From positions 1 through 27,328 of the IMG/VR virus record IMGVR_UViG_3300022845_000015: DNA of 27,328 nucleotides. One strand, given 5' to 3'. A program made the translations under genes and the position numbers. Origin of the DNA: a virus. Shown piece after piece: positions 1,546 to 22,797 of this stretch (position 1 is its first letter; each line of letters opens with the position of its first letter). Below the pieces are notes generated by a model, which worked only from the letters and a program-made list of their open reading frames with translations, was not told where the DNA came from and ran no database searches.

Positions 1546-1635
1546 AGGAGGGCAGAGGAGTTGAACCCCACTCGCCATCTCTGACGAGCCCTCTGCTTTC
1601 GAGGCAGTGACAGCACCCATGCCGCATTACCCTCC
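1546..1635 (-). tRNA. tRNA-Ser (anticodon CGA), no encoded CCA
   Basis: On the minus strand, acceptor GGAGGGT (from 1635) pairs with GCCCTCC ending at 1547. The anticodon arm is CTGC-CTCGAAA-GCAG, with U33 and anticodon CGA, which reads serine codon UCG. A long variable arm (CTCGTC pairing with GGCGAG around a six-base loop) is typical of class II serine tRNAs. The T loop is TTCAACT. The T stem has one T-T mismatch and the D arm (CGGC-ATGGGT-GCTG) sits two bases further in than usual. The bases after the acceptor read TTTGG, so CCA is not encoded and must be added. A tRNA nucleotidyltransferase family gene lies upstream on the same strand. Confidence 0.78.
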
Positions 1636-4218: not shown

Positions 4219-5919
4219 ATGGCCCGCATAAAAAAATCCAGGAAAAGCAAAGCACCTCCCAAAAAAATACAAATGGAAGAGGTGCTTAAATGCGGCACCG
4301 ACGCTCGCTACTTTATCAACAACTACGTAAAAATCTCCCATCCAATGAAGGGGGTGATTAAGTTTGACACCTTCCCGTTCCAGGACGAGTGTTTGGAGAT
4401 TTTTCAGCAAAACAGATTCGCCATCGTCAACAAGTCACGTCAGTTGGGTCTTTCTACAGTCTCTGCTGCGTACTGCCTGTGGATGGGTATATTCCGTAAG
4501 CAAAAGTTCCTCGGTGTCATCGCTACTAAGCTAAAAACCGCACAGCTCTTCATTCGAAAAGTAAGAGACATGTATATGTCCTTGCCCGATTGGCTTGTCA
4601 TGCCAGCAGTTACTGGAGATTCCAAGTCACACCTTGAGTTCTCCAATGGATCCCGTATCGAGGCTTCTGCAACCTCTCAGGATGCTTTCCGTGGTGCAGC
4701 ACTTTCTCTTTTGGTAGTCGATGAGGCCGCTCACGTTGAAGGAATTGAAGACCTGTGGCTTGCCCTTTGGCCTACTTTGTCCACTGGTGGTTCTGCCATC
4801 CTAATCTCTACACCTTCAGGTGTTGGTTCCTTTTTCCATAAAATGTGGAAATCCGCACAAGAAGGCGGAAATGACTTTGTGCCAATCGAACTTCCATGGA
4901 CAGTTCACCCAGAACGTGATCAGGAATGGTACGAAAAGGAACGACGTCAGTTAATCGAAGCTAAGGGTGAACGAGGAGTTGCACAAGAGCTTTTGTGTTC
5001 GTTTGCTGCATCTGGTGACACATTCCTGAATGTTGACGTGATGGACATGATTCATCAGGTTATCAAGAAGCCAATAGCCTTTTGGGGGCCTGACTGGACA
5101 ATACGAAAAGATATGTGGATCTGGGAGCATCCTAAACCCGAACACAAATACGTCATTTCCGCAGACGTAGCCCGAGGAGACGGTGCCGACTTCTCTGCTT
5201 TCCACGTAATTGACACAGTGGCCGATGAGGTTGTAGCCGAGTACAAAGGTAAAATGCCTCCCGATAAGTTTGGTGAAATGTTGGTCACGGCCGGCTTGAG
5301 ATACAATATGGCAATGGTTTGCCCAGAGCGCAACTCAGTAGGACTTCCTGCATGCTTGAAGTTAAAAGAGATGAATTATCCTAACCTTTTTTACCCAAAG
5401 CTTCAAAAAAACATCTACATGGCTTACTCAACCATAGAGTTGGCTAATGAGATCCCTGGTTTTGAGACCACTGAAAAAAGCAAACAAGAGATTCTAGCTC
5501 GATTAGAAGATGTCCTTAGGAACAAGCGGCTCAGCATCTACTCAGAGAGGTTCCATGCAGAACTTCAAACATTCGTCTGGAAGAAGAATAACAAATTATC
5601 GGCTCAGAAGGGCTACAATGATGACCTTGTTATGTCACTCGCCATTGGTAATTCTCTGTTCGAAGCAGGCGGGGCCTCAGCCTACAGCTCTGACGAAATC
5701 GCTAAAGCAATGATCGCTGGCATGTCTGTAAACACTCAAGTGTTCAATGCGGTAGATGCCCCAGATTCAGCAAACCAACATGCTGCTCCACCCATTATGA
5801 CAGATGGTAGCCTTACCGACTTCCTAGACCGAAATAGAGCCATGAACTCTAAGGCAGCAAGCGGTACACATAACTACAACGATAGTTTTTGGAAGCAGTT
5901 TAAATGGGTGTGGGACTAG
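4219..5919 (+). CDS. terL: Terminase large subunit (ATPase and nuclease)
   Basis: The motor that pumps phage DNA into the prohead and cuts it. The ATPase half shows the variant Walker A SRQLGLST at residues 73-80, Walker B LLVVDEAA with D168 and E169, and the coupling motif STPSG at 197-201. The RNase H-like nuclease half shows YVISADVARGD with D316, a conserved Glu in PERNSVG near 370, and GYNDDLVMSLA with D468/D469. These are the three acidic sites expected in T4 gp17-type terminases. At 566 residues it is a normal length for the family. No partner TerS is evident by sequence in this window. Confidence 0.95.
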   Translation: MARIKKSRKSKAPPKKIQMEEVLKCGTDARYFINNYVKISHPMKGVIKFDTFPFQDECLEIFQQNRFAIVNKSRQLGLSTVSAAYCLWMGIFRKQKFLGVIATKLKTAQLFIRKVRDMYMSLPDWLVMPAVTGDSKSHLEFSNGSRIEASATSQDAFRGAALSLLVVDEAAHVEGIEDLWLALWPTLSTGGSAILISTPSGVGSFFHKMWKSAQEGGNDFVPIELPWTVHPERDQEWYEKERRQLIEAKGERGVAQELLCSFAASGDTFLNVDVMDMIHQVIKKPIAFWGPDWTIRKDMWIWEHPKPEHKYVISADVARGDGADFSAFHVIDTVADEVVAEYKGKMPPDKFGEMLVTAGLRYNMAMVCPERNSVGLPACLKLKEMNYPNLFYPKLQKNIYMAYSTIELANEIPGFETTEKSKQEILARLEDVLRNKRLSIYSERFHAELQTFVWKKNNKLSAQKGYNDDLVMSLAIGNSLFEAGGASAYSSDEIAKAMIAGMSVNTQVFNAVDAPDSANQHAAPPIMTDGSLTDFLDRNRAMNSKAASGTHNYNDSFWKQFKWVWD

Positions 5920-6056
5920 GCAAATGTTACCTTTGTTATTTTAACTCTATACCCAGAATTGGCCAGTCTCATTCAACTATCAGAAGGAATTTGCTGACCA
6001 AGCAGGAACAATTCAAACATGCAGGTTGTTAATTTTAGTTCAACATATTTAGTTGC

Positions 6057-7061
6057 ATGACCAACTATTTCTTCTCTGCCTCTCTGTCACCAGCGACAGG
6101 TAATGACGCTGTCTGGATTCTGAAGGATACACTTGTTCAAGCAGGTTGGGTTGTTGTCTCTTCATCAGATGCGACAACTTTCTCTTCGGGTGATGTCCTT
6201 ACGGCTTCGTCCGATCTGGCAAATAGTAATGCTTGGTTTGTTGTTAAACAGCCTTTGGGTGCAACAGGTTCGCACGGAGGCGTCCGCCGTGAATATGCTT
6301 TTCAGAGAGGCACCAACTCATTGAGTTGGCGTGCCAAATATTCCTACAGCGCAAGTTTTACAGGAAGTGCTAATGCAACTACGTTACCAGATGCTTTGGA
6401 TCAAGTCAGACTTATCGGGACAGAACTTCCAAACTTTTCTTTTGAAACTTTCTATTTTGACACTGATGGATCATATACGCTCCACGTTGCGGCTGACCAA
6501 GATCCCCCTTACTCGTGGTATTTTGTACAAGTTGAACCAGGCGGCGCCAACATTGATGTGTGTTGGATATCTGATGGAATGGTTAGCGGCACTTTTGATC
6601 CAGGAGATGTTGACCCCTATGTAAATTATTGTGCTGATGGAAGTAGTGTATTAGATGGATTAACTGCGTCGAACACGGTCACCCACGCCATCACTTCCTC
6701 AATTATTTTAACTCCAGCAGCTTGGTTCGCAAAAAATACACCAAGTGAAGTTTATGGAGGAGTCGCAGCAATGGCGTATGGATTCTTTTTAGCTTCGCAA
6801 CAGGAATTTGCAGATGATAAAGGAAGAACAAACCATATAACTGGAAACGACGATCTTCTCCCAGTATTCTGGTTCAGGCCTGCTACTGCGAACCCTAGTG
6901 GCCCTGGCGGATACAAGGGCGCAAGTTCATTGTTAAAATCACCAGCTGGACCAGTTCGCTCTAATGGTTCCACCTATTCTATCGCTACATCATCGTCTAA
7001 AGATTTCATTCGACTTGGTGATTTTGCTTTTCCCTGGGATGGTACAAACCCTCTAGTATAA
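6057..7061 (+). CDS. Probable virion structural protein (334 aa)
   Basis: Large Ser/Thr/Gly/aromatic-rich beta protein with no charged helices, signal peptide or membrane helix. It begins with a WILKDTLVQAGWVVVSSSD segment, followed by a WFVVKQP strand and a WRAKYSYSASF strand. Proteins with this opening are common among phage tail, baseplate or fibre-associated proteins as far as I recall. It lies between terL and a small beta-rich partner. The 137-base gap upstream carries no gene. No Shine-Dalgarno is clear before ATG 6057. Structural assignment is likely but the exact virion location is not known. Confidence 0.75.
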   Translation: MTNYFFSASLSPATGNDAVWILKDTLVQAGWVVVSSSDATTFSSGDVLTASSDLANSNAWFVVKQPLGATGSHGGVRREYAFQRGTNSLSWRAKYSYSASFTGSANATTLPDALDQVRLIGTELPNFSFETFYFDTDGSYTLHVAADQDPPYSWYFVQVEPGGANIDVCWISDGMVSGTFDPGDVDPYVNYCADGSSVLDGLTASNTVTHAITSSIILTPAAWFAKNTPSEVYGGVAAMAYGFFLASQQEFADDKGRTNHITGNDDLLPVFWFRPATANPSGPGGYKGASSLLKSPAGPVRSNGSTYSIATSSSKDFIRLGDFAFPWDGTNPLV

Positions 7062-7068
7062 GGTTCAA

Positions 7069-7329
7069 ATGCCAAACTACGCAGCAAGCATTCCCCATAG
7101 TGGGACTATTACTTCATCCCAAATAATAGGTTATGACTCATTACGAGGTCGAACTGGTTATAATGGAACTAATTTCATTCAACTAACGAGTTCAAACATA
7201 ATCCAGGTGATAGAAGGTGGTTCCCCAACTGTGTTGGTGTTCCGTGGAGTCTCTGGAGGTGTCTACGTGTTTAGTGAAGGTAGTCCGCCATCTGGTGCTA
7301 CTCAGGTTACCATTATCGGGACCAAGTAA
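7069..7329 (+). CDS. Small beta-rich protein, possibly structural (86 aa)
   Basis: ATG 7069 lies seven bases after the preceding stop. The 86 residues are rich in Ser, Thr, Gly and Ile with alternating hydrophobics (TVLVFRGVSGGVYVF), suggesting a small beta sandwich or a fibre or decoration subunit. It is probably co-expressed with the larger structural gene upstream. It precedes the palindrome-rich gap starting at 7330. No named family is recognised. Confidence 0.65.
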   Translation: MPNYAASIPHSGTITSSQIIGYDSLRGRTGYNGTNFIQLTSSNIIQVIEGGSPTVLVFRGVSGGVYVFSEGSPPSGATQVTIIGTK

Positions 7330-7353
7330 GTCTGAAACTTTCTTATTGCTAGC

Positions 7354-7373
7354 TTGATCAGGAAGGTGATCAA
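7354..7373. repeat. Inverted repeat TTGATCA / TGATCAA
   Basis: Perfect seven-base arms at 7354-7360 and 7367-7373, each containing GATC, flank a six-base spacer GGAAGG. The T-run needed for an intrinsic terminator is absent, so a protein-binding or structural role is more likely. Confidence 0.7.
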
Positions 7374-7516
7374 AATTCCCTCATGATCTCCTCCAGTTCC
7401 AAATCGGACTTAAGAAGCTTTAAGTTAGTCAAACTCGAAAAGTGATCTAGTTTCAATTACTTACATAACTCTGAGTTACACAAGTTTCTGATCATAATGT
7501 AAACTCGGATCATCAT

Positions 7517-7526
7517 TGATCGATCA
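7517..7526. repeat. Perfect palindrome TGATCGATCA
   Basis: Ten-base perfect palindrome with two overlapping-phase GATC sites, set within further GATC/ATCGAT copies (7508-7531). It is one of the densest GATC points in the gene-free region. Confidence 0.65.
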
Positions 7527-7679
7527 TCGATTCAACAGATTCAAGTATCTTCGATTCCATCTCAGAAACCTGAATGTATCAAATCAATCTTCGTCAATTA
7601 GAAGATCCTCTATATAGAAGACTAATTTAACACTCAATTACTATCAATTGGGAGAGTCTGAGAGGGTTTTGTAGGTAAT

Positions 7680-7702
7680 TTGGTTTAAACCTAAGGTACC
7701 TT
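7680..7702. repeat. Adjacent palindromes GGTTTAAACC and AAGGTACCTT
   Basis: Two perfect ten-base palindromes lie one base apart (7682-7691 and 7693-7702). The 14-base stretch TTGGTTTAAACCTA (7680-7693) recurs exactly at 15660-15673 in another intergenic gap, suggesting a shared binding site, although a 14-base match alone could be chance in a window this size. Confidence 0.55.
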
Positions 7703-7721
7703 CCATTATACTACAAACAGG

Positions 7722-7774
7722 TGATTACCTCTCTGCGAGACTTCTGAGAAGTTGGGAATTTGTAATGGTAATCA
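7722..7774 (+). ncRNA. Possible branched RNA fold upstream of 7862 gene
   Basis: Outer arms TGATTACC (7722-7729) and GGTAATCA (7767-7774) pair perfectly over eight bases. Between them lie TCTC-TGC-GAGA (7730-7740) and ACTTC-TGA-GAAGT (7740-7752), so the transcript could form a closed stem with inner hairpins. Whether it is transcribed is unknown. A structured leader or DNA-level site are equal alternatives. Confidence 0.35.
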
Positions 7775-7808
7775 TGAGAGACCCAACAAGAAGCTCTGAA
7801 ACAATTCT

Positions 7809-7828
7809 TCAAGTGTACTTACACTTGA
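7809..7828 (+). repeat. Eight-base hairpin with ACTT loop near the 7862 start
   Basis: TCAAGTGT (7809-7816) and ACACTTGA (7821-7828) pair perfectly around a four-base loop. It stands just upstream of the ribosome site for the 7862 gene and has no T-run, so it could be an operator or a leader hairpin. Confidence 0.6.
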
Positions 7829-7861
7829 TCTTAGTGAGTTCCAACAGGTATAGGTGAATAA

Positions 7862-9232
7862 ATGAGTGAAAAGTCTACTATGAAGGTCACAGAGCATGTG
7901 ATTGTTACAGAGCGGAAGCGACATCCAAATGATGTACGTTACCCTTGCAGGGGTAGTCACGAGGTCCTGGATGCAGGACGCAAACTTATGACCTTCCTCA
8001 ATAATGATGACCCTGTCCAGCTGGATCAATTGAGAGACGGTCAATTGATCCTAGATGAAGAAGAAACTGCTGAACTCTTTGATTCAATTAAGAAGGAAGA
8101 TGTGATTGGCTTGGGAACATTCCGACAGACTGGACATCCTAATGCTGGTTTCACCTCCAACATGTATACGGTAGAAGAAGTTCACCCAGATGAGGACTAT
8201 CTGGAATGTAGGAACATGCGTTCTGAGGAGATTGAGGAGATCACTTTTCAGGATGTGTCTGTTGCGCTTGCTCTTGGACTCGCCGAAATTCTTTATCGTG
8301 GCGACAAACCGTTCGGTATCACGAATGACATCGAATGGAAGATCTCAGTACAGGAGAAGGAAGAGGAGGAAGAAGATTCAACTTCACCCAACGCTACATC
8401 AGCCACTCCTGCAACCCAGACAGAAGCATCGGATGTTCTAGAAGAAGAAGATACTTTAAGTGATATGTTTGGAGACCTTGGTGTACCTTCCTTGACTGCA
8501 AAGGAGTCAGAGCCATTGAAGCCAAAGATTCTTTCAGAAGAAGAACTCAAGGCTGCATTTGCTGAAAAGATGGACACCAAATTTCTGTCGAAGGGAATGA
8601 GGCTCAGTTATCTCCGTGTCCAGAAGTTGAAAGAGGGTGAAGTTATTTGGGTTCACGCAACCACGAACCTTGGTGCGGTAACCGCAAAGGGACCTCTGTT
8701 TCTTCGTAGCATCGAAAAGAGTCTTTACACGTTCATCTCTGCCACTGAAGTAGAGCATGTCATTGACATTGTTGACGGGTTCGACGATTATGCAGGCCAT
8801 TTCTTGAGCAATGGAGGCTTTTACAACCTTTTTGAAGCCCGAGATAGCCGACCAAAGCCTGAGAGTGCTGCAAGCGCTAATGATGATTCGGACAAGCTTA
8901 TCGAAGCTATGGGTCTCAACAAGAAGGCCAAAAAGGCTGAGACAGAGAGTTCTGAACCGTCTCTACCTCCAGTCCGATGGCCAGACTGTTACTTTGCTTT
9001 TGGGTACCTTAACGATACCTACAGCCTAGTTGTATGCCCTAAGGATCATTGGGATGAACATCAAGCTCTGGACGATGGGACGAGGGTAAAGCAGATTGCT
9101 GACCAAGTAGGAATCCAGGAGCGACTTCCTGGAGTGTTTGAGTATGCGGAATCCCATAGTGAGTCCGACCTCAGAATGCTCTTCAAAGCCTTTGGCTGTG
9201 TAGAGAATAAGAACATGGTAGACGACCTGTAA
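7862..9232 (+). CDS. Acidic hypothetical protein (456 aa)
   Basis: ATG 7862 follows AGGTGA eight bases away. The 456-residue protein is acidic and divides into three parts. The first is an N-terminal mixed domain to about 170, followed by a Glu/Ser/Thr linker (roughly 162-200, with an EEEEE run). The second is a central domain of about 220-330, and a second charged linker leads to the third, a C-terminal domain of about 365-456 ending MVDDL. No catalytic or binding motif is recognised. It stands alone between the palindrome-rich region and a strong terminator, so it may be an independently controlled single-gene unit. Confidence 0.85.
   Translation: MSEKSTMKVTEHVIVTERKRHPNDVRYPCRGSHEVLDAGRKLMTFLNNDDPVQLDQLRDGQLILDEEETAELFDSIKKEDVIGLGTFRQTGHPNAGFTSNMYTVEEVHPDEDYLECRNMRSEEIEEITFQDVSVALALGLAEILYRGDKPFGITNDIEWKISVQEKEEEEEDSTSPNATSATPATQTEASDVLEEEDTLSDMFGDLGVPSLTAKESEPLKPKILSEEELKAAFAEKMDTKFLSKGMRLSYLRVQKLKEGEVIWVHATTNLGAVTAKGPLFLRSIEKSLYTFISATEVEHVIDIVDGFDDYAGHFLSNGGFYNLFEARDSRPKPESAASANDDSDKLIEAMGLNKKAKKAETESSEPSLPPVRWPDCYFAFGYLNDTYSLVVCPKDHWDEHQALDDGTRVKQIADQVGIQERLPGVFEYAESHSESDLRMLFKAFGCVENKNMVDDL
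8023..8051. repeat. Ten-base perfect inverted repeat inside coding sequence
   Basis: GGATCAATTG (8023-8032) and CAATTGATCC (8042-8051) are exact reverse complements around a nine-base spacer. Each arm carries GATC and AATT. It lies about 160 bases into the 7862 gene and continues the GATC/palindrome style of the non-coding region upstream. Confidence 0.65.
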
Positions 9233-14728: not shown

Positions 14729-15623
14729 CTGGAGAAAGTATAGGTCTTGGTCGGGAGCGAAAATTTTGGGCATCAAAGATTTCGTTCTTACGGATGAGCA
14801 AAAAAAGCGTCACATATGGCGTGGGCTTTGGCTAACAGCTATGGCTGAAGGTGGTGGTAAGTTCGGCGCAGTGCAGTCCTATGACGGCGCAGGGATATCA
14901 GCTGGTCTAGAACATAAAATTGGTGTATATCCACGTTCAATGAAACAAGGCTCAATTTGGCGTTTGCTTCGTGAGTTTGAACTTCATGCTCCATGTCAAG
15001 CTCTGGATAATCTTTGGAGTGAACTAAAAAGAGACAAGAAGTACATTGCTCAAGATGGTTCTCTCCGACACTGGGAAACAGGCCGCTTAATAACAGGCGC
15101 CGAAATTCGGGATCTGGTAGCCCCTCCAGGTGGACGTGTTCCACGTAAAGGTCCCAAGTGGGAAAAGGCGGAAATGTGGGCTGTTCTTTTCCACGATTTG
15201 TTTGCAGATGAGGTAACTTACCAAGTTCAGATTGACTCGGCAATTGAGTCTCTAGTCAAAGGAAATCAAAGAGTAGAATCTGCTGCGTATAAAGAGACAG
15301 TTGGTCTCGAACACCCGACAGCAATCGAGTTCGGGAAAAATATTTCGGCTGAGCATGACCTAGCTTGGAACGTATACCACTCGTTTTCCGTAAATGCCCC
15401 TAGTATGGGTCGAATAAGATTACAAGCCTCACGGCCCGATGCATCTTCTGAATGGCCTAAAAGGCTTATCAAGACGTTAGGGACAACCAATTATGGCAGA
15501 TGGCATGACACAGTTGATGGTGGAAATAGATACGATCGTACACGAGTGTTTGCCATTCGAAGCAATCTCTGGCCAGCTGAGCTATTCAACGGGCCTACCG
15601 CTATAATGCCAAGAAATATCTGA
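14715..15623 (+). CDS. Lysozyme-like protein, putative peptidoglycan hydrolase
   Basis: Residues 36-70 read as a lysozyme-like active site. LTAMAEGGG places a candidate catalytic Glu at 45, GAVQSYDGAG gives an Asp at 57, and ISAGLEHKIG resembles the T-x-G-L turn of muramidase and transglycosylase folds. The rest (residues 75-302) is charged and Trp-rich and not recognised. At 302 residues it is longer than simple endolysins and may carry a binding domain. There is no signal peptide, so it would need a holin or be virion-borne. Function as endolysin or tail-associated lysin is inferred from motif resemblance. Confidence 0.68.
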   Translation: MTKVSWRKYRSWSGAKILGIKDFVLTDEQKKRHIWRGLWLTAMAEGGGKFGAVQSYDGAGISAGLEHKIGVYPRSMKQGSIWRLLREFELHAPCQALDNLWSELKRDKKYIAQDGSLRHWETGRLITGAEIRDLVAPPGGRVPRKGPKWEKAEMWAVLFHDLFADEVTYQVQIDSAIESLVKGNQRVESAAYKETVGLEHPTAIEFGKNISAEHDLAWNVYHSFSVNAPSMGRIRLQASRPDASSEWPKRLIKTLGTTNYGRWHDTVDGGNRYDRTRVFAIRSNLWPAELFNGPTAIMPRNI

Positions 15624-15629
15624 ATATCT

Positions 15630-15646
15630 CCCGACTCGGGCGTTTT
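15630..15646 (+). terminator. Short terminator-like hairpin
   Basis: CCCG-ACT-CGGG (15630-15640) followed by CGTTTTC, seven bases after the lysozyme-like gene stop. The stem is only four GC pairs, so termination may be partial. Confidence 0.5.
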
Positions 15647-15653
15647 CAAATTT

Positions 15654-15673
15654 ACCAAATTGGTTTAAACCTA
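15654..15673. repeat. Overlapping palindromes with second GGTTTAAACC copy
   Basis: ACCAA-A-TTGGT (15654-15664) overlaps GGTTTAAACC (15662-15671). The 14 bases TTGGTTTAAACCTA (15660-15673) are identical to 7680-7693. Placement 10 bases before the next start suggests an operator or a phage-specific promoter element. Confidence 0.5.
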
Positions 15674-15682
15674 GATGCGGGC

Positions 15683-16054
15683 ATGTCACAATGTGTTATG
15701 TTCTGTAAGGGCAAGTTGTATCGTGTTAAACATGATTTCAAGACCTATAATGCCCAGATGCAATTTGAGATATCAGAAGCCGAGTTCAGAACATGTGAAG
15801 CAAACGGAGTAGTACTACACGAGTCGTTCCTGCACGTCGAATCGAAAAACCGCCCCTTTGAATTTAAACTAAAGCATGGAGACCTGCTAATGTACCTGGC
15901 TAGCACAAGGTGCACCACATTATTCAACCTCCCTTATATAGGGAGGTCGTTTTTATATGGCGAACAAGTTATTCACTTGTATCTGGCGGCAACGGAAGGA
16001 AGTGAATCTTTACTTTTAGCGCCCATGCTTCCATCGTATGAAGTTTCGAAGTAA
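15683..16054 (+). CDS. Hypothetical protein (123 aa), SH3-like layout
   Basis: ATG 15683 opens a 123-residue protein with GKLYRV at 10-15, HGDLLMYL at 65-72 and a beta-rich tail. It shares the GKLY and HGD-hydrophobic pattern with the 158-residue protein at 14252, from which it is separated by the lysozyme-like gene. Its start lies just past the GGTTTAAACC palindrome. A terminator-like hairpin falls inside its coding sequence (15927-15954). Function is unknown. Confidence 0.7.
   Translation: MSQCVMFCKGKLYRVKHDFKTYNAQMQFEISEAEFRTCEANGVVLHESFLHVESKNRPFEFKLKHGDLLMYLASTRCTTLFNLPYIGRSFLYGEQVIHLYLAATEGSESLLLAPMLPSYEVSK
15927..15954 (+). terminator. Intragenic terminator-like hairpin
   Basis: ACCTCCCT (15927-15934) pairs perfectly with AGGGAGGT (15940-15947) around TATAT and is followed by CG and five T residues. 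It has the form of an intrinsic terminator but sits inside the 123-residue gene, 169 bases ahead of the split polymerase gene, so it could attenuate transcription into dnaE. Confidence 0.5.
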
Positions 16055-16122
16055 CTCTGGTTATAAAAAAGGCCTATATAAGATTTGGGATTGTGGCCAG
16101 TCCCTTCACATGAAAGTTATTA

Positions 16123-17865
16123 ATGAATAAGAAATACCCTAAGAAGTTTGTGGGATTGCATTCCCACAGTACGTTTTCGATTGGTGATGCAATCGGCATG
16201 CCGCAAGATCATATCAATTATGCCATTGATAACGGAATGGATGCCCTGGCGCTTACAGACCATGGCAACATGAATGGTTATTCACACCAGTTTTTTCACC
16301 ATGAAAAGCTGGTAAAGAAGGGCGTGAACTTCAAGGCACTGCCAGGCATTGAAGCTTACTTCATTGATTCACTTCCACGATGGCAGGAAATTTATGATGG
16401 CCGTAGAGAAATCAAGCGTCTAGAGAAGCTAGTAAAGAAGGGTAATGTCGATGCTAAGGACCAGCTCAAGAGACATCTAGAGCTTCTTGGGGATGCATAT
16501 GCCTCAACAAAACTTGATTTGGAAGATACGGTTGCGGGCACGGTAGTAGAAAACGAGGAAGAAACGAAGGGCAATAAATATGGCGACCCTCTGAACCAGA
16601 GAAATCACCTTGTTTTACTTCCAAAAAACCGTGAGGGCCTTACAGCACTTAACCAGCTTGTTTCTGAGTCTTACGTTGATGGCTTTTATCGCTACCCCAG
16701 GATGGACCTGGAGATGCTCAAGAAGTACGCAAAGGGTAACATCATTGCTCTAACGGCATGTGTAGGTGGAGTACCCGCACGGAAGGTATTTGACCGACAG
16801 AAAGACCCAAACTTCGAGAACTGGGAGCCCAATGACCTGCACTTTGATGAGATTCAACAGGAATTGAAAAAGGTTGTTGATGGCTTCAAGTGGGCTCTTG
16901 GTGAAGAGAATTATTATCTCGAACTTCAGTTCAACTCCCTGGGAGCGCAGCATCTTGTAAACCAACATCTCATTGAAGCGAGTAAGCGTACAAATACTAA
17001 GCTTGTTGTAACAGTGGATGCACACTACTCTCACCCAGACCACTGGAAGCAGCGTGAGATTTACAAGATGATGGCGTGGTCTTCCAGAGGCCAAGGCTTG
17101 GATACTTCCAAACTCCCGCAGAAGATGGAAGAGTTGAAATGTGAACTTTATCCAAAGAATGCCGAGCAGGTTTGGGAATCATACCACAGGTATAAGGAAG
17201 GCAAGGGCTGGGATTTCTATGATGACGATCTGGTGTGCGAGGCTATTGAACGAACACACACAATTGCTCACGACCAGATTGATGATATCACGCCAGATCG
17301 TTCTGTAAAACTACCATCGATCAGTCGCATGGTAGATAAGTTTGAGTTGGAAACAATCTATGATAAGGTTGGGACCGAGGCGACCGAAGACCAGGTTGCT
17401 TTTCAGGAACTGAAGCGTCAGGCAATTGCAGGTATAAAACGCAGAGGGTTTGCTGAAAACCAGGAGTACATTGCCCGACTCAAGCACGAGCTGAAGGTCA
17501 TCAAGCATCTGAACTTCTCAAAGTATTTCCTCACGTACTCCAAAATTATGGAGATTGTAAGTGAACACATGCTGATTGGAAACGCCCGAGGATGCTTTCT
17601 CCCAGGGTCTCGTGTGAAAATGGCGGATGGGTTGCATGCCAAAATTCAAGATATCATCATCAGCGATAAAGTAATAGACGCATTTGGTAATGAACAATCT
17701 GTGGAAAACACTATGACATATGACATCGATGAAGAATGTATTGAACTTGAACTCGACAACGGTAAGGTGATTAGATGTACCAAGAACCATGAGATTCTAA
17801 CTTCAAATAGAAGCTGGGTCGAAGCTCAACACCTCACCGAAGAAGATGTTGTCGTTGAAGTATGA
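16123..17865 (+). CDS. dnaE: DNA polymerase III alpha, N-terminal part, fused to N-terminal split intein
   Basis: First half of a fractured replicative polymerase. Residues 9-80 are a PHP domain with metal-binding motifs intact: LHSHST (H13, H15), LTDHGN (D46, H47), GIEAYF (E77), and later VDAHYSH at 298-304. The polymerase region then starts and stops after IGNARG at residue 490. From Cys491 the protein becomes an intein: CFLPGSRVKM, then a block with RCTKNHEIL matching the TxxH intein block B. The ORF ends 90 residues into the intein. The missing half begins at 18937. The stop overlaps ATG 17862. Expected product: the N-extein, joined by protein trans-splicing to the C-part. Confidence 0.95.
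   Translation: MNKKYPKKFVGLHSHSTFSIGDAIGMPQDHINYAIDNGMDALALTDHGNMNGYSHQFFHHEKLVKKGVNFKALPGIEAYFIDSLPRWQEIYDGRREIKRLEKLVKKGNVDAKDQLKRHLELLGDAYASTKLDLEDTVAGTVVENEEETKGNKYGDPLNQRNHLVLLPKNREGLTALNQLVSESYVDGFYRYPRMDLEMLKKYAKGNIIALTACVGGVPARKVFDRQKDPNFENWEPNDLHFDEIQQELKKVVDGFKWALGEENYYLELQFNSLGAQHLVNQHLIEASKRTNTKLVVTVDAHYSHPDHWKQREIYKMMAWSSRGQGLDTSKLPQKMEELKCELYPKNAEQVWESYHRYKEGKGWDFYDDDLVCEAIERTHTIAHDQIDDITPDRSVKLPSISRMVDKFELETIYDKVGTEATEDQVAFQELKRQAIAGIKRRGFAENQEYIARLKHELKVIKHLNFSKYFLTYSKIMEIVSEHMLIGNARGCFLPGSRVKMADGLHAKIQDIIISDKVIDAFGNEQSVENTMTYDIDEECIELELDNGKVIRCTKNHEILTSNRSWVEAQHLTEEDVVVEV
17593..17862 (+). other. N-terminal split intein (IntN, 90 residues)
   Basis: The coding segment for residues 491-580 begins with Cys1 (TGC at 17593). 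It contains the block A region CFLPGSRVKM and block B CTKNHEIL, with Thr and His spaced as TxxH. Ninety residues is the usual size for IntN of naturally split phage inteins such as gp41-1. No endonuclease domain is attached; the endonuclease is a separate gene downstream. Confidence 0.93.
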
Positions 17866-17989
17866 AGCTGGCAGTGAAATTTGAACCACGTGATTTGTGG
17901 GTTGGTTTGTTTTGGGACAAAAAGCAGATGGTTTAAACTTGCATTTTTGCCCTTTGCCAATGTTTCTAATCCATGTATTGGTTTCATAA
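17862..17989 (+). pseudogene. Small conserved phage-type protein needing a -1 frameshift
   Basis: ATG 17862 overlaps the dnaE-N stop (ATGA). The zero frame gives 24 residues, MKLAVKFEPRDLWVG then LFWDKKQMV and a stop at 17936. In the -1 frame the sequence continues ADGLNLHFCPLPMFLIHVLVS to a stop at 17989. Joining the two gives a protein with the layout of a small phage family I recall (RDLWVG near the start, CPLP followed by a hydrophobic strand near the end). The shift point is GAC AAA AAG, a C AAA AAG slippery site. Possible explanations are a programmed -1 frameshift, a decaying gene or a sequencing error in an A-run. Confidence 0.55.
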
Positions 17990-18032
17990 CCAGTCCCTCG
18001 GCCTTTACCATTGAACACAACTATTCACGAAC

Positions 18033-18989
18033 ATGGGTGGCCGTGTAATTTGTCCAAAGTTGACCGCAGAACAACTACAGACAATCGAGAACATAGAATC
18101 TCCATGTCTGACAGAGGACATGCTAGCACCTATGTTAACAGAGTGGAAGATGACCTGGCATTCATTGAAGCGACGAGCCTGGCGCTCGGGCATCGAAACT
18201 AAGTTTGGGTACTCTTGGATGGAGTTTCAGGCAAATCAAAAACTTCACAGCAAATACAATAAAAACAACCTCTACATCCAATGTCCGTGTGGTAAGGACT
18301 ATGTTTGTATCGTATTTGGGTTTATGAGAAGGAAACACCAAAAACCAGTTTGTGATAGTTGTTACAAAGAACAGTTTGCCTACGATACCGAATGGCGAGC
18401 CAACAATAGCAAAGCCCAACTTATAGCGCAAAATCGGCCTGAAACTCTTGCAAGGCAAACAGCTTCACAGAAAAGAAGACATGCACAACCTGGCATGAAA
18501 GAGAAGTATAGACAAATTGAGAAAAGGCTTTGGAAGAGCGCAGAATACCGTGAAAATGTAATCAAAAATTCTATTGCGATATCTGGTATGTATGAAGGTC
18601 TTACATACCAAAGTTCTTATGAATTGGCGTTCATTATCTGGTCACTAGAAAAAGGTTATTCGCTTAAGCGATTTGATCTAGAGGGGATTCCGTATGTATT
18701 TGAAGGAAAAGAACATCGATACTACCCAGATTTCATTGTAAATCAAAATCGAATTGTTGAAGTGAAAGGTCGTGGTGGCCTCTATTACAAAAAATTGCAA
18801 TGGCGCTGCAACGCAAAAGACCATGCACTGAAGGCGTGGTGCAAAGACAACGAGTTTTATGCTAGACTAGTATTTGACTCTGACATTCCGAAACAACTGA
18901 TTAAAGAAGCTCGAAAGTGGCACAAGGAAAATAACATTGGCAAAGCTAACAAAAAAGACTCTATTCCATTACACAGGCAAGGTTCATGA
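18033..18989 (+). CDS. Free-standing homing endonuclease, PD-(D/E)XK/Vsr-like
   Basis: Sits between the two halves of the split-intein polymerase. Residues 84-110 hold a zinc finger (CPC, then CDSC). A basic helical segment at about 120-180 (SKAQLIAQNRPETLARQTAS, WKSAEYRENV) resembles NUMOD-like DNA-binding repeats. The catalytic domain follows: E197 in SSYELAF, D233 in YYPDFIV, and E243/K245 in IVEVKG, the core of Vsr-like and PD-(D/E)XK nucleases. The start lacks a Shine-Dalgarno; ATG 18120 or 18132 are alternatives. Its 3' end overlaps the C-half ORF by 53 bases. Probable role: spreading the fractured gene to uninterrupted dnaE alleles. Confidence 0.9.
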   Translation: MGGRVICPKLTAEQLQTIENIESPCLTEDMLAPMLTEWKMTWHSLKRRAWRSGIETKFGYSWMEFQANQKLHSKYNKNNLYIQCPCGKDYVCIVFGFMRRKHQKPVCDSCYKEQFAYDTEWRANNSKAQLIAQNRPETLARQTASQKRRHAQPGMKEKYRQIEKRLWKSAEYRENVIKNSIAISGMYEGLTYQSSYELAFIIWSLEKGYSLKRFDLEGIPYVFEGKEHRYYPDFIVNQNRIVEVKGRGGLYYKKLQWRCNAKDHALKAWCKDNEFYARLVFDSDIPKQLIKEARKWHKENNIGKANKKDSIPLHRQGS

Positions 18990-19044
18990 TCTCACCGTCA
19001 GTGAATCTCATTCATATAACATTGAAGGATTAGGAGTACACAAT
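18937..19044 (+). other. C-terminal split intein (IntC, 36 residues)
   Basis: Block F reads VHDLTVSESHSYNI and block G ends in HN, with Ser (TCT 19045) as the first C-extein residue. All residues needed for the last splicing steps (penultimate His, terminal Asn, +1 nucleophile) are present, so the pair looks active. Confidence 0.93.
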
Positions 19045-21267
19045 TCTGCTGGCGGGTCTTTGCTTGCTTATGTTCTGAACATTACTCAGCTAGACCCGAT
19101 CAGGTATGGCCTACTTTTTGAGCGTTTCCTCACACGCTTCAAGAAAGGCTTTCCCGATATTGACTCTGATTTCTCAGACCGTGAGAAAGCAGTTCAGCTT
19201 ATTGCTGAACACTTTGGTGAAGAGAACGTCATCCCGATTTCTAACTTCAACCAACTTCAAATGCGCTCATTGGTTAAGGACTTGTGTCGCTTGAATGGAG
19301 TGCCATTCGAAGAGGTCAATAAATACACACGTAAAATTGAAAGTGAGGCATTGGGTGAGGCGAAGAAGAAGCCAGGCTTCGACCGACAGCTGTGGACATT
19401 GACATTTGACGAGGCAGCTGAGAAGTCCAAGACTTTTCAGGAGCTTATGGTTGAGTTCCCTGACCTTGAAAACAACATCAAGGTGTTGTTCAAGCAAATG
19501 AGAAACGTCTCACGACATGCTGGCGGCGTCATCATTACGGAGACTCCCAATAAGCACATGCCGCTCATCAAGAGCGGTGGGGTTCTTCAAACGCCTTGGC
19601 AAGAGGGATTGAATTTTCGTCACCTTGAAGGTTTCGGGCTTCTAAAGTTTGATATTCTTGGGCTTGGTACGCTTAGGATATTTGAGAACACAATTCGACG
19701 TATTCTAAAGAAACAGGGTACCAAATACCCAACATTCCGAAATGTGCAGGACTGGTTCTATACGAACCTTCATCCAGACAACAATCAGATGGATGACATC
19801 AAAGTCTACAAACATGTGTATTGGAACGGCAACTGGGCTGGAGTTTTTCAGTTCGTCCAGCCTCCCGTACAGAAATTCATTAAGAAGATGAAGCCAAGGA
19901 CCATCCTTGATATCGCAACAGCAACTTCGATTTTCCGCCCTGGACCTCTAGCCATCGGAGCTGACAAGTTGTATTTGAACAACCGCAAAAACCCTGAGAG
20001 CATCATCTACAAACATGAGTTACTCGAAGAGGTGCTGGATGTCACCTGTGGACTAATTGTTTTCCAGGAGCAACTACAGCTCATCTACCATCAGATGGCT
20101 GGGGTTCCTCTCGAAGAGACCGACATGGTTCGTAAATCCTTCACAAAGAAGGACAAATCTAACAAGGGTGCAGCTGACGCACAGAGAAAGCAGATGCGTG
20201 AAGATTTCGCCATCAAATGCAAAGAAGTACACGGCACGCAGCTGATTACCAGCTACAAGATTTTTGACGAGATGGAAGAGTTCGTAGCATACTCGTTCAA
20301 TAAGAGCCACGCTACCGCCTATGCCATCACTTCATATCAGTGTGCTTGGCTTCTCACCTATCATCCAGATGAGTGGATGGCCAGTTATATCGATTACTGT
20401 GCAACTGATAAGGGACACGTTACAGGCAAAGAAGCGCCTATCTCAATCGCCCTTGGTGAAGCTAAGGGTCTTGGTTACAAGGTTGGGAAGCCTGACATCA
20501 ACGAGTCTGAGGCAGATTATCAGGTCAAAAACGGAGTGCTAATTCCAAGTTTCCAGGCACTGAAGCATGTTGGCATGCCCACACTAAGGGAAATTCAAGA
20601 ATTCCGACCCTACAAAACGGTTGAGGAGCTTCTATGGAATCAGGATCAGACATGGAGGCACAGCAAATTCAACAAGAGAGCCCTTTCAACTCTTATAAAG
20701 CTTGAAGCTTTTGAGTCTATGGACCTTGTCGGTGAAGACAAGATGTTCAAGAACTATCGCCAAATGCATTATGTGCTTGTCGACCAAGCTGATAATCTAA
20801 AAAGAGCCTGTTCACGGAAAAAAGAACCACGTCCACCAGAAATCCTGGAAGACCTTATTAAGGAGGCTCAGGGGCTTAAGGACTGGACGATTGATGAGAA
20901 GATCGAGCACAGTCAGACGCTTGCAGGTTCAGTGAACATCAACCTTATCATCACAAAGGAGATCAAGGCCTACTTCGAAGAAAATGGTATTGGGTCTGTT
21001 GATGAATGGCGCAGTGAAAACAGTTATTATTGGGCAGTTGTAAAACGAAGTGTAGTAGCCAAAACAAGGAATGGAAAACCATATCTGAGAATGAAAGTCT
21101 ATGGAGAGTCTGGCTCAGAGCAGGGGTGTTTTATCTGGGGATTCAACCCTAAGCGTGATGCAGTGATTCCTAGCAATACACTTGTGTTAGCTAGATTTAA
21201 AAAGTCAGATTTCGGCCTTTCAACACATTTTACCAAGTTGGATGTAATCGAACGTAAAGATGACTAA
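18937..21267 (+). CDS. dnaE: C-terminal split intein fused to DNA polymerase III alpha, C-terminal part
   Basis: Second half of the polymerase. The start is TTG 18937, set by AAGGA at 18924-18928 eight bases upstream. Residues 1-36 are IntC (GKVHDLTVSESHSYNI, ending GLGVHN), followed by extein Ser37. The extein resumes SAGGSLLAYVLN, completing the GRG-SAGGS motif of bacterial DnaE. Palm catalytic acids follow: PDIDSDF with D74 and D76, and LLKFDILGL with D239; VSRHAGGVII is at 191-200. The tail (about 690-776) looks like a nucleic-acid-binding OB-like region. Trans-splicing would give 490 plus 740 residues, about 1230, typical of DnaE. Confidence 0.95.
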   Translation: MAKLTKKTLFHYTGKVHDLTVSESHSYNIEGLGVHNSAGGSLLAYVLNITQLDPIRYGLLFERFLTRFKKGFPDIDSDFSDREKAVQLIAEHFGEENVIPISNFNQLQMRSLVKDLCRLNGVPFEEVNKYTRKIESEALGEAKKKPGFDRQLWTLTFDEAAEKSKTFQELMVEFPDLENNIKVLFKQMRNVSRHAGGVIITETPNKHMPLIKSGGVLQTPWQEGLNFRHLEGFGLLKFDILGLGTLRIFENTIRRILKKQGTKYPTFRNVQDWFYTNLHPDNNQMDDIKVYKHVYWNGNWAGVFQFVQPPVQKFIKKMKPRTILDIATATSIFRPGPLAIGADKLYLNNRKNPESIIYKHELLEEVLDVTCGLIVFQEQLQLIYHQMAGVPLEETDMVRKSFTKKDKSNKGAADAQRKQMREDFAIKCKEVHGTQLITSYKIFDEMEEFVAYSFNKSHATAYAITSYQCAWLLTYHPDEWMASYIDYCATDKGHVTGKEAPISIALGEAKGLGYKVGKPDINESEADYQVKNGVLIPSFQALKHVGMPTLREIQEFRPYKTVEELLWNQDQTWRHSKFNKRALSTLIKLEAFESMDLVGEDKMFKNYRQMHYVLVDQADNLKRACSRKKEPRPPEILEDLIKEAQGLKDWTIDEKIEHSQTLAGSVNINLIITKEIKAYFEENGIGSVDEWRSENSYYWAVVKRSVVAKTRNGKPYLRMKVYGESGSEQGCFIWGFNPKRDAVIPSNTLVLARFKKSDFGLSTHFTKLDVIERKDD

Positions 21268-21279
21268 TTACACCATAGT

Positions 21280-22797
21280 ATGTCCAAACAACTTCTCCGT
21301 TTAATTGAGTCAGCGATTGATAGTGAAATCAGCCTATACCTGAGCGAAGCCCGTGGGGTAGCTGCGAGAGAAACTGGGCAATTGCTAGTTGATAATGATG
21401 GAACAGAATATGAAATTGCCAACATCCGAAAGTTCCCAGGTGAATCTGATTCATTCGATTCCTCAGAAGAGCTTTCAGATGCTGTCGATTCATTTCTGGA
21501 GCTGAACACTGAAGAAATAGATGTTGAGTTAATAGAAGTTAACTCAATCACTGCTGACAAAAAAGGTGCCATCTTAATTTATCTCTTAAATAAAGAGGAT
21601 AACACCTACCGTGGTTATATCAGGTATGTCCAAAATACAAAAAATGGTGGATATGGCAAATGGACGATGGCCAAGTTTGCTAGAGACACGGGCCTGAAAC
21701 TCAAGAAGGGGGCCGCAGCCCTTGAAGGTTTTGCGCTAAAGCCTAGTGACCTCATACAGGATGAAAATCTCCGTACTGTGGCAGAAGTAGTATCAACTGC
21801 GAAGACCAACACTGCACTAATGGTAAAATCTGGAGGCTTGCCTGCTGAAGCTGGAGAGCACGTTGAGATGCTATTAGACGCCGCCTTAAAAGGCGGGCAG
21901 TCCCCAGTTTTGCCTGGTGGTAACAAATATGCGAAGGCATACAACAAGTATCTTGGCGAGATACTTGCACCAATATCCGTCGTGTCCAATTGGGTGTCCA
22001 CAGGAGACAGAGCTTCTTCCGAGAAGATACTGTTACCACAAAGTTCATATGCTCAGTGCAGAATTCGCTTCTTCCAGTCAGCCACCAATGCTCTTGTAGA
22101 TTCAGAGTTGGAAGCGCCAAATGGAATGAAGGTTGGAATTAGCTCTAAGGCTGGCACAGGTGCAGCAGCATCTGTGACTTCACTTCTTTCTATTTTGAAC
22201 GAAATTCAATCTAAGAACCCTAAGGGTTATCAGCATATCCTGAGCGAATATGGATTTCCAATCAGCATCATTCAAACAATTAACAACAACAACGCAATCC
22301 TCGGTGTCTTGGAATCAGCTAAAATTATGGGTATTGTAGACGACCAGGATATGAAGGTTGTCGTCAACATGAGAAGGATGCGTAGGGACAAAGCTGTTCA
22401 GGGAATGAAGGCAAACCACCCAAGCTTGTCTACACCAAATCTCATTGAGCTTTCTAAGCAAATGTGGGGCAAAACTCCTTGGGAGATCATCGACCCACCA
22501 CCTACCTACCACCCATTCTTTCATCTGCTCGCAGGAATTGCAAAGAGACTAACAGCTCAGATTAACAGAGAAGACTCATTTGATGCAGCTGTTAGAGCAA
22601 TTTTAAATCATAGCTCTGTCATCCAAGTTAATAGTAAAATGGGTCGTGTGAACAAGGTCGATGCCTTCTTTAAAGACTTTAATGTGGTATACCCACCAAA
22701 CTTCCAGGGTAAAATCTATGCTAACTCAGGGAAGAACTTCTTTACTACGGGCATCAAAGGCAAAATTAGCTTCAAGATTAAAACAAAGGTAGGCTAA
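21280..22797 (+). CDS. Hypothetical protein (505 aa)
   Basis: ATG 21280 lies 12 bases after dnaE. The protein has an amphipathic N-terminus (LLRLIESAIDSEISLYLSEA), an acidic segment at about 50-85, and a central domain containing VGISSKAGTGAAASVTSLLS near 285-305. A C-terminal region ends in a beta-rich segment (YPPNFQGKIYANSGKNFF). The SSKAGTG region recalls uncharacterised phage proteins but I cannot name a family. An L-S-E site at residues 21-23 could be a prohead protease site. Function is not assigned. Confidence 0.85.
   Translation: MSKQLLRLIESAIDSEISLYLSEARGVAARETGQLLVDNDGTEYEIANIRKFPGESDSFDSSEELSDAVDSFLELNTEEIDVELIEVNSITADKKGAILIYLLNKEDNTYRGYIRYVQNTKNGGYGKWTMAKFARDTGLKLKKGAAALEGFALKPSDLIQDENLRTVAEVVSTAKTNTALMVKSGGLPAEAGEHVEMLLDAALKGGQSPVLPGGNKYAKAYNKYLGEILAPISVVSNWVSTGDRASSEKILLPQSSYAQCRIRFFQSATNALVDSELEAPNGMKVGISSKAGTGAAASVTSLLSILNEIQSKNPKGYQHILSEYGFPISIIQTINNNNAILGVLESAKIMGIVDDQDMKVVVNMRRMRRDKAVQGMKANHPSLSTPNLIELSKQMWGKTPWEIIDPPPTYHPFFHLLAGIAKRLTAQINREDSFDAAVRAILNHSSVIQVNSKMGRVNKVDAFFKDFNVVYPPNFQGKIYANSGKNFFTTGIKGKISFKIKTKVG

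What the first reader, a model, noticed from the sequence alone, without database searches (positions are those of the whole stretch)
16123..21267. Fractured dnaE: split intein halves separated by a free-standing endonuclease
Sequence shows DnaE (490 residues) ending at IGNARG and continuing into a 90-residue IntN. A separate ORF starts with 36 residues of IntC and resumes with SAGGS. An intact PD-(D/E)XK endonuclease lies between them. This matches the 'fractured gene' arrangement described from marine metagenomes by Dassa and colleagues (2009) for phage-type genes. A phage-borne PolIII alpha carrying it would be a good new example and a potential source of a fast trans-splicing intein.
Basis: partly seen in the sequence, partly recalled or inferred. 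Interest (0 to 1): 0.88.

Follow-up and report, generated by a model that had tools for sequence, protein, structure and literature searches.

The report
Phage DNA polymerase split by intein
In this virus the gene for the main DNA-copying enzyme is broken in two by a mobile element that carries its own DNA-cutting enzyme, and the two protein halves most likely find each other and weld themselves into one working polymerase; relatives show the same element in several stages of its life, which makes it a good place to study how genes come to be split.

Summary
ORF 16123-17865 is DnaE-N (490 aa) plus a 90-aa IntN; ORF 18937-21267 is a 36-aa IntC plus DnaE-C; a 318-aa nuclease ORF lies between, in another frame. 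A second record of the same virus differs at 3 of 14,223 bases, none inside the element. All intein catalytic residues are present. Related loci settle the interpretation: another phage has an unsplit 129-aa mini-intein at the same site, and the window's split falls in its 5-residue linker. Of 29 classifiable viral loci with an intein here (the window's virus included), 25 are split, 22 of them with a homologous nuclease, and all 25 have a start codon 34-36 codons before the IntC end. The ten nearest dnaE rows lack the element; occupancy changed at least 13 times on the dnaE tree. Best reading: a 'fractured gene' joined by protein trans-splicing and spread by a PD-(D/E)XK homing nuclease. Splicing and cleavage are inferred, not shown. 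The window is a new member of a known kind; relatives show rarer forms (two fractured sites in one dnaE, nuclease-less splits, a nuclease overprinted on a cis intein).

The parts
16123..17592 (+). DnaE N-extein, 490 aa (PHP domain and start of the polymerase domain), ends ...LIGNARG
   Evidence: contiguous with the C-extein in empty alleles L004, L005, L006, L008
17593..17862 (+). IntN, 90 aa, Cys1 and TxxH (CTKNH) present; stop at 17863-17865
   Evidence: 52% id to contiguous mini-intein L108; 54% to L175 IntN; best PDB sequence match NrdJ-1 8ubs 3.6e-06
17866..18032 (+). 167-nt spacer between IntN stop and nuclease start; no folding signal above shuffles
   Evidence: z -0.06, 17866-18060 folded
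18033..18989 (+). Free-standing nuclease ORF, 318 aa; predicted order: winged-helix-like N-terminus, Cys-rich ribbon, helical linker, PD-(D/E)XK core (about residues 185-300); domain names read from the model by eye
18621..18767 (+). Nuclease active-site residues E197 (18621), D233 (18729), E243 (18759), K245 (18765), invariant in 17 of 17 aligned homologues
18924..18928 (+). AAGGA, Shine-Dalgarno-like, 8 nt before the TTG of the IntC ORF
18937..19044 (+). IntC, 36 aa, TTG start, ends ...GVHN; overlaps the nuclease ORF by 53 nt
   Evidence: (start aligns with the ATG of L175 IntC)
19045..21267 (+). DnaE C-extein, 740 aa, begins SAGGS (Ser+1); stop included
17593..19044 (+). Whole element, 1452 bp, absent from empty alleles

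Best explanation
This is a fractured dnaE gene. Two proteins are made: DnaE-N-IntN (580 aa) and IntC-DnaE-C (776 aa, translated from the TTG at 18937 inside the 3' end of the nuclease gene). IntN and IntC bind each other and splice in trans by the ordinary class 1 route: acyl shift at Cys1, transfer to Ser+1, cyclisation of the last Asn. This leaves a 1230-aa polymerase III alpha joined at GNARG-SAGGS, with no intein in it. The free-standing PD-(D/E)XK nuclease most likely cuts intein-less dnaE alleles at this site in mixed infections, so that repair copies the whole 1452-bp element into them. Shown: gene layout, conservation of residues and layout, empty alleles, repeated gain or loss. Inferred: translation of both halves, splicing, cleavage, homing of this particular element.
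For: Layout and domains. Cys1, TxxH, terminal HN and Ser+1 in 32 of 32 site-A inteins, the window among them. The split lies in the 5-residue linker of the unsplit homologue L108. 25 of 29 classifiable site-A viral loci are split, the window's virus included, and all 25 have ATG, GTG or TTG 34-36 codons before the junction. L175/L250: same site, same 90 + 36 split, homologous nuclease at 35% identity although its DnaE-N is only 37% identical. Nuclease active-site residues invariant in 17 of 17; model with mean pLDDT 85.8, best structural match TnsA, Z 8.7 over 142 residues. The ten nearest dnaE rows are empty at this site (nearest 86.5% identical), while the nearest intein sits in a dnaE 61.6% identical; at least 13 changes of occupancy, 11 forced by well-supported branches. 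No PolA or PolB family match in the 90,967-bp record of this virus. Transfer signature in a sister element at another dnaE site: element C 99.76% identical between L021 and L026 against 91% in the flanking dnaE.
Against: No splicing, expression or cleavage data. The nuclease ORF has no Shine-Dalgarno-like site. Only 3 of 23 gene starts that I picked from the ORF list have one of 5 nt or more, the IntC TTG being one of the three; as 24 of all 600 TTGs in the window also have one, it could be chance. L245, the nearest intein by identity, is split but has no nuclease, so the split can persist without it. No near-identical pair of occupied and empty alleles was found for this element. The site-A intein tree is poorly resolved, 15 of 26 inner branches open, so the order of events is not shown. 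The block F histidine, as searched, is missing in 14 of 32 site-A inteins, though not in the window. Foldseek gave no PDB match at E 0.001 or better for the nuclease, and the model's pTM is only 0.47.
Confidence: 0.87

Rival explanations
1. A cis intein broken by decay: the insertion wrecked an ordinary intein and dnaE is now dead.
For: Some relatives have damaged nucleases (L253 has one in-frame stop).
Against: Both window halves are open and intact; all four splicing features kept; the split form recurs in 25 of 29 site-A viral loci with a conserved IntC start; no PolA or PolB match in the same record to take over, though 5 of the 17 records searched, none of them the window's virus, do have a PolA match.
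Confidence: 0.05
2. Assembly or sequencing artefact that broke one reading frame.
For: IntN and IntC are in the same frame.
Against: Second assembly agrees at every base of the element; a 167-nt spacer and a separate homologous gene in another frame cannot come from one indel; independent homologue L175 has the same layout.
Confidence: 0.01
3. The C half is made as a nuclease-IntC-DnaE fusion through ribosomal frameshifting, or by stop-codon coupling, not from its own independent start at 18937.
For: Nuclease and IntC ORFs overlap by 53 nt; L268 has the nuclease fused in frame to IntN, so fusions occur in the family.
Against: Start codon at a fixed place in 25 of 25 split loci; three split loci have no room for a nuclease at all, 56-224 nt between the halves.
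Confidence: 0.05
4. Split intein is real, but the nuclease is not a homing enzyme for this site (a passenger, or a resolvase-like enzyme of the phage).
For: Weak resemblance to T7 endonuclease I (profile against 1m0d, E 0.0012) and to TnsA; split forms without nuclease exist.
Against: Homologous nuclease at the same place in 22 of 25 split site-A loci, one of them weak (L248, 23% identity); other dnaE sites carry other nuclease types in the same position, by eye, and element C shows a transfer signature.
Confidence: 0.1

Closest known systems
Fractured genes of Dassa et al. 2009 (NAR 37:2560; not held, content recalled)
   Same: Conserved DNA-synthesis gene broken by a split intein with a free-standing endonuclease gene between; phage setting.
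   Different: Nuclease here has D-x9-E-x-K and no Vsr/EDxHD motif; whether their eight enzyme types include dnaE at this site could not be checked.
Split PolB intein of Pseudomonas phage MIJ3 (PMC6892783, passages read)
   Same: Phage DNA polymerase split by an intein with a homing nuclease gene between the halves.
   Different: Family B polymerase and HNH nuclease there; family C polymerase and PD-(D/E)XK nuclease here.
Lactococcus phage P1048 DnaE intein (MN552145.1; phage 949 gives a similar hit)
   Same: Same insertion site, GRG before Cys1 and Ser+1 after HN.
   Different: One uninterrupted 376-aa cis intein; the embedded nuclease looks LAGLIDADG-like (by eye).
NrdJ-1 split intein (PDB 8ubs)
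   Same: Best PDB sequence match for IntN and for the L108 intein.
   Different: Different host gene (ribonucleotide reductase, recalled from its name).
Cyanobacterial split DnaE inteins (Npu, Ssp)
   Same: DnaE, split at the usual endonuclease position.
   Different: Site is near CFNKSH (recalled), about 420 residues downstream of this one; halves lie far apart in the genome and no nuclease lies between (recalled).
ShiLan hidden HNH element (PMC11855218, abstract and passages read)
   Same: Out-of-frame homing nuclease inside a phage gene, the precedent for relative L283.
   Different: No intein there; in L283 the open frame is an intein.

Membership tests
Fractured gene (Dassa type; definition recalled) | Conserved enzyme gene cut in two by IntN and IntC in separate ORFs | tested here: met
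Fractured gene (Dassa type; definition recalled) | Free-standing endonuclease gene between the halves | tested here: met
Fractured gene (Dassa type; definition recalled) | Uninterrupted alleles of the host gene exist (supporting, not strictly defining) | tested here: met
Class 1 split intein | Cys1, block B TxxH, terminal His-Asn, Cys/Ser/Thr+1 | tested here: met
Class 1 split intein | Split at the endonuclease position | tested here: met
   position described in PMC11923092 (passage)
Class 1 split intein | Trans-splicing activity | not testable with these tools
   needs the bench
PD-(D/E)XK nuclease superfamily | Core fold and D...ExK residues | tested here: met
   invariant residues; model; TnsA Z 8.7; T7 endonuclease I 0.0012; no Pfam match over cut-off in the window protein
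Vsr-like (EDxHD) homing endonucleases | EDxHD active-site motif (recalled) | tested here: not met
   17 of 17 aligned homologues have the Glu and Lys of ExK; the fold is near (Vsr Z 6.4, I-Bth0305I Z 6.3)
Homing endonuclease | Cuts the empty allele site-specifically | not testable with these tools
   only indirect: patchy occupancy
Cyanobacterial split DnaE intein | Insertion at the CFNKSH site (recalled) | tested here: not met
   junction is GNARG-SAGGS; FNKSH is uninterrupted in the window's C-extein

The most novel reading that the evidence does not exclude
Phage dnaE is a hot spot where one split-intein element at the GRG-S site moves as a unit with a dedicated lineage of PD-(D/E)XK nucleases (known to Pfam only in part, as DUF7487 of unknown function), and where most stages can be seen at a single site: unsplit mini-intein, cis intein with an overprinted nuclease, nuclease fused to IntN, full fracture, and nuclease-less split. 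Some phages carry two fractured sites in one dnaE, so one polymerase would need two orthogonal trans-splicing reactions.
Probability: 0.5. Interest if true: 0.75.

Novelty: new member of a known kind. Interest (0 to 1): 0.6.

Why it matters
How split inteins arise is an open question. Here a single insertion site in one phage gene offers a graded series: empty, unsplit, overprinted, fused, fractured and nuclease-less forms. That makes the order of events testable, and gives some two dozen split-intein pairs to assay for speed and for mutual orthogonality, including, at other dnaE sites, pairs that would have to work side by side in one protein.

Tried and rejected
Promoter and terminator scan of 15600-21400: promoter-like sites as many as in shuffles (9 found, 8.7 expected); terminator-like 9 against 5.1 (sd 2.2), not pursued. 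RNA folding of the spacer: no signal. Rfam at gathering threshold over the whole window: 0 matches, so no known intron family reached threshold. The first nuclease model, from two sequences, was poor (pLDDT 58.2) and was replaced by the 17-sequence model. Foldseek alone found nothing at E 0.001. A regular expression for IntC blocks F and G over the 70 nuclease-scan loci found 0, although L175 clearly has one by eye: the pattern was too strict, and the 0 means nothing. The tree of site-A inteins does not settle whether split came from cis or the reverse: the unsplit L269 (same contig as L108) falls in a set with the window (support 88/92); four near-duplicate rows were dropped before it; L311, whose frame is broken, was entered there as cis. 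Rows left out of the 29-locus count: L266 (contig ends before IntC), and L273, L274, L284 (GGGC or GNGC instead of GRGC, so perhaps another gene or site; two of these three read as split, none with the nuclease). Three genome-collection loci (L310-L312) are outside that count but inside the 32. At 90% nucleotide identity the 30 site-A loci form 25 clusters, and the 25 split ones 21. For the dnaE tree 189 rows were reduced to 152 by coverage and 97% identity. Passages of PMC7090010, PMC3229294, PMC10448857, PMC3653736, PMC10343443 and PMC7765530 were also looked at and named no such case.
Full report
OBSERVATION. The window is a 27,328-base virus record. ORF 16123-17865 encodes DnaE-N and a 90-residue IntN; ORF 18033-18989 encodes a 318-aa nuclease in another frame; ORF 18937-21267, from a TTG, encodes a 36-residue IntC and DnaE-C. 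Pfam puts PHP and polymerase III alpha domains on the two DnaE parts. The same stretch in a 90,967-bp record differs at 3 of 14,223 bases, none inside the 1452-bp element; that record is the same virus.

EMPTY ALLELES. In L004 (8,696-bp contig, 85% and 87% identical in the two DnaE parts), L008, L005 and L006 the two DnaE parts are joined with no insert at this place. The junction in the window is GNARG-[C...HN]-SAGGS; in L004 it reads GMARG-SAAGS.

UNSPLIT AND SPLIT HOMOLOGUES. L108 has a contiguous 129-aa mini-intein at the same site. Window IntN matches its residues 1-89 (52%) and IntC its residues 95-129 (60%), so the split falls in five linker residues. L041 has another unsplit one, 135 aa. 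Lactococcus phage P1048 has a 376-aa cis intein at the same site. L175/L250 (one contig) is a distant dnaE with the same site, the same 90 + 36 split, a homologous nuclease (35%) and an IntC whose ATG aligns with the window's TTG; its DnaE-N is 37% identical to the window's while IntN and IntC are 54% and 58%.

SURVEY OF THE SITE. A profile scan with four IntN sequences gave 66 viral loci and 3 genome loci. Thirty viral loci, the window's virus included, have GRG followed by Cys1; one ends before IntC. Of 29, 25 are split and 4 unsplit. Of the 25, 22 have a nuclease homologous to the window's between the halves (L248 only weakly, 23%; in L268 it is fused to IntN; in L253 it is broken by one stop); L245, L252 and L258 have none. 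All 25 have ATG, GTG or TTG 34-36 codons before the IntC end. Cys1, TxxH, HN and Ser+1 are present in 32 of 32 (29 viral and 3 genome loci); the block F histidine, as searched, is in 18 of 32, the window included. These loci are related, so the counts are not independent; at 90% DNA identity the 30 make 25 clusters.

MOBILITY. On a tree of 152 DnaE rows (132 empty, 17 split, 3 unsplit at this site) occupancy changes at least 13 times, 11 forced by well-supported branches; shuffled labels give 19 on average, so there is also some inheritance. The ten rows most identical to the window's DnaE are all empty at this site, led by L015 (86.5%; same contig as L004); four of the ten (L021, L096, L019, L025) carry inserts at other dnaE sites. 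L245, whose intein is nearest by identity, has a DnaE only 61.6% identical to the window's and is itself nearest to empty L030 (81.4%). Gains and losses are not told apart.

OTHER DNAE SITES. A search of 166 loci with the joined exteins showed inserts over 150 bp in 17, several of them the same contig fetched twice. Beside site A these are: site B near residue 273 (L019, L021: split intein with a GIY-YIG-like nuclease), site C near residue 524 (L021, L026: split with a Zn-finger PD-(D/E)XK-like nuclease), site D near 795 (L024, L025: cis with HNH), site E near 205-214 and a site at FNK-SH near 910 (L040: both split with Vsr-like nucleases; L041, L044: same FNK-SH site), and L143, not clearly an intein. 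The nuclease types at these other sites are read by eye from motifs, not from a family search. L021 (B and C) and L040 (two sites) have two complete fractured sites in one dnaE; L175 has a second IntN at site C, where the contig ends.

TRANSFER SIGNATURE AT SITE C. Element C is 1273 of 1276 identical between L021 and L026, against 680 of 747 and 1917 of 2109 in the flanks; downstream identity falls from 95.7% to 84-88% with distance. L019, 93-98% identical to L021 in the three DnaE stretches compared, lacks C. This fits transfer with co-conversion, but it is a sister element, not the window's.

NUCLEASE. Seventeen homologues align with E197, D233, E243, K245 and three Cys invariant. The model (mean pLDDT 85.8, pTM 0.47) has a winged-helix-like start, a Cys-rich ribbon, a helical linker and a PD-(D/E)XK core (domain names by eye). 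Best structural matches: TnsA Z 8.7 and 8.6 (rmsd 6.2 and 5.6 A over 142 and 141 residues), Vsr 6.4, I-Bth0305I 6.3; Z under 8 may be only a common arrangement. The profile finds T7 endonuclease I at 0.0012. Of the 17, 11 match Phage_endo_I, 9 TnsA-like and 6 DUF7487 (best 2.9e-36) at E 0.01, so part of this lineage is catalogued in Pfam as a family of unknown function. PHROGs finds an unknown family at 1.6e-16 and an endonuclease family at 2e-09 for the window protein. Relatives of the nuclease also occur in T4-like terminase genes.

WHAT IT DOES. No PolA or PolB match was found in the virus's 90,967-bp record (the record may be incomplete; 5 of the 17 records searched, not this one, have a PolA match), so DnaE is probably the replicase, and only the spliced product would be whole: the cut lies in the conserved RGS motif, with the PDIDSD residues in the other half (motif roles recalled). 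Most likely the halves are made from two starts, splice in trans, and the nuclease spreads the element. Splicing and cleavage remain inferred.

LITERATURE. Dassa 2009 could not be read; its content is recalled. MIJ3 PolB (PMC6892783, passages), the usual split position (PMC11923092, passages) and ShiLan (PMC11855218, abstract and passages) were read in part. In eight searches no listed title or abstract start named a fractured phage dnaE; three listings were cut, and the library lacks most subscription journals.

Noticed in passing
L283 4998-6360 (IMGVR_UViG_3300013122_000379): Site-A intein is one open frame from IntN through IntC, yet a homologous nuclease ORF of 314 codons (5284-6225) lies in another frame inside it. 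The intein frame has 0 stops there; 2000 codon shuffles of the nuclease gave a mean of 14.9 and a minimum of 7. Precedent without an intein: ShiLan, PMC11855218.
   Followed up: partly
L021 1774-5003; L040 2852-7511: Two fractured split-intein sites in one dnaE, so three DnaE polypeptides and two nucleases; in L021 an assembly hybrid is not excluded.
   Followed up: partly
L021 3728-5003 against L026 3727-5003: Element C 99.76% identical while flanking dnaE is 91%, with identity falling off downstream: looks like recent transfer with co-conversion.
   Followed up: yes
L245, L252, L258: Split inteins at site A with no nuclease; the IntN of L245 has a 49-aa tail.
   Followed up: partly
L012 467-3567 (Shewanella phage Thanatos-2); L011 2555-5666 (Escherichia phage vB_EcoM_G2494): Terminase gp17 broken in two ORFs: a short IntN fused to a nuclease related to the window's, then a long IntC carrying the rest; by eye an atypically split intein.
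   Followed up: partly
L253 2377-3108: Nuclease reading frame interrupted by a single stop, i.e. a decaying nuclease in a still-split dnaE.
   Followed up: no
L108 about 6852-8956: A second intein-like start after PDID (CIASNH...) followed by about 2 kb without clear DnaE; not resolved.
   Followed up: no
window, 23 gene starts picked from the ORF list: Only 3 of 23 starts have a Shine-Dalgarno-like site of 5 nt or more; some starts may be misplaced, or the host may not rely on such sites.
   Followed up: no
window 1546-1635, - strand: tRNA-Ser (cga) gene.
   Followed up: no
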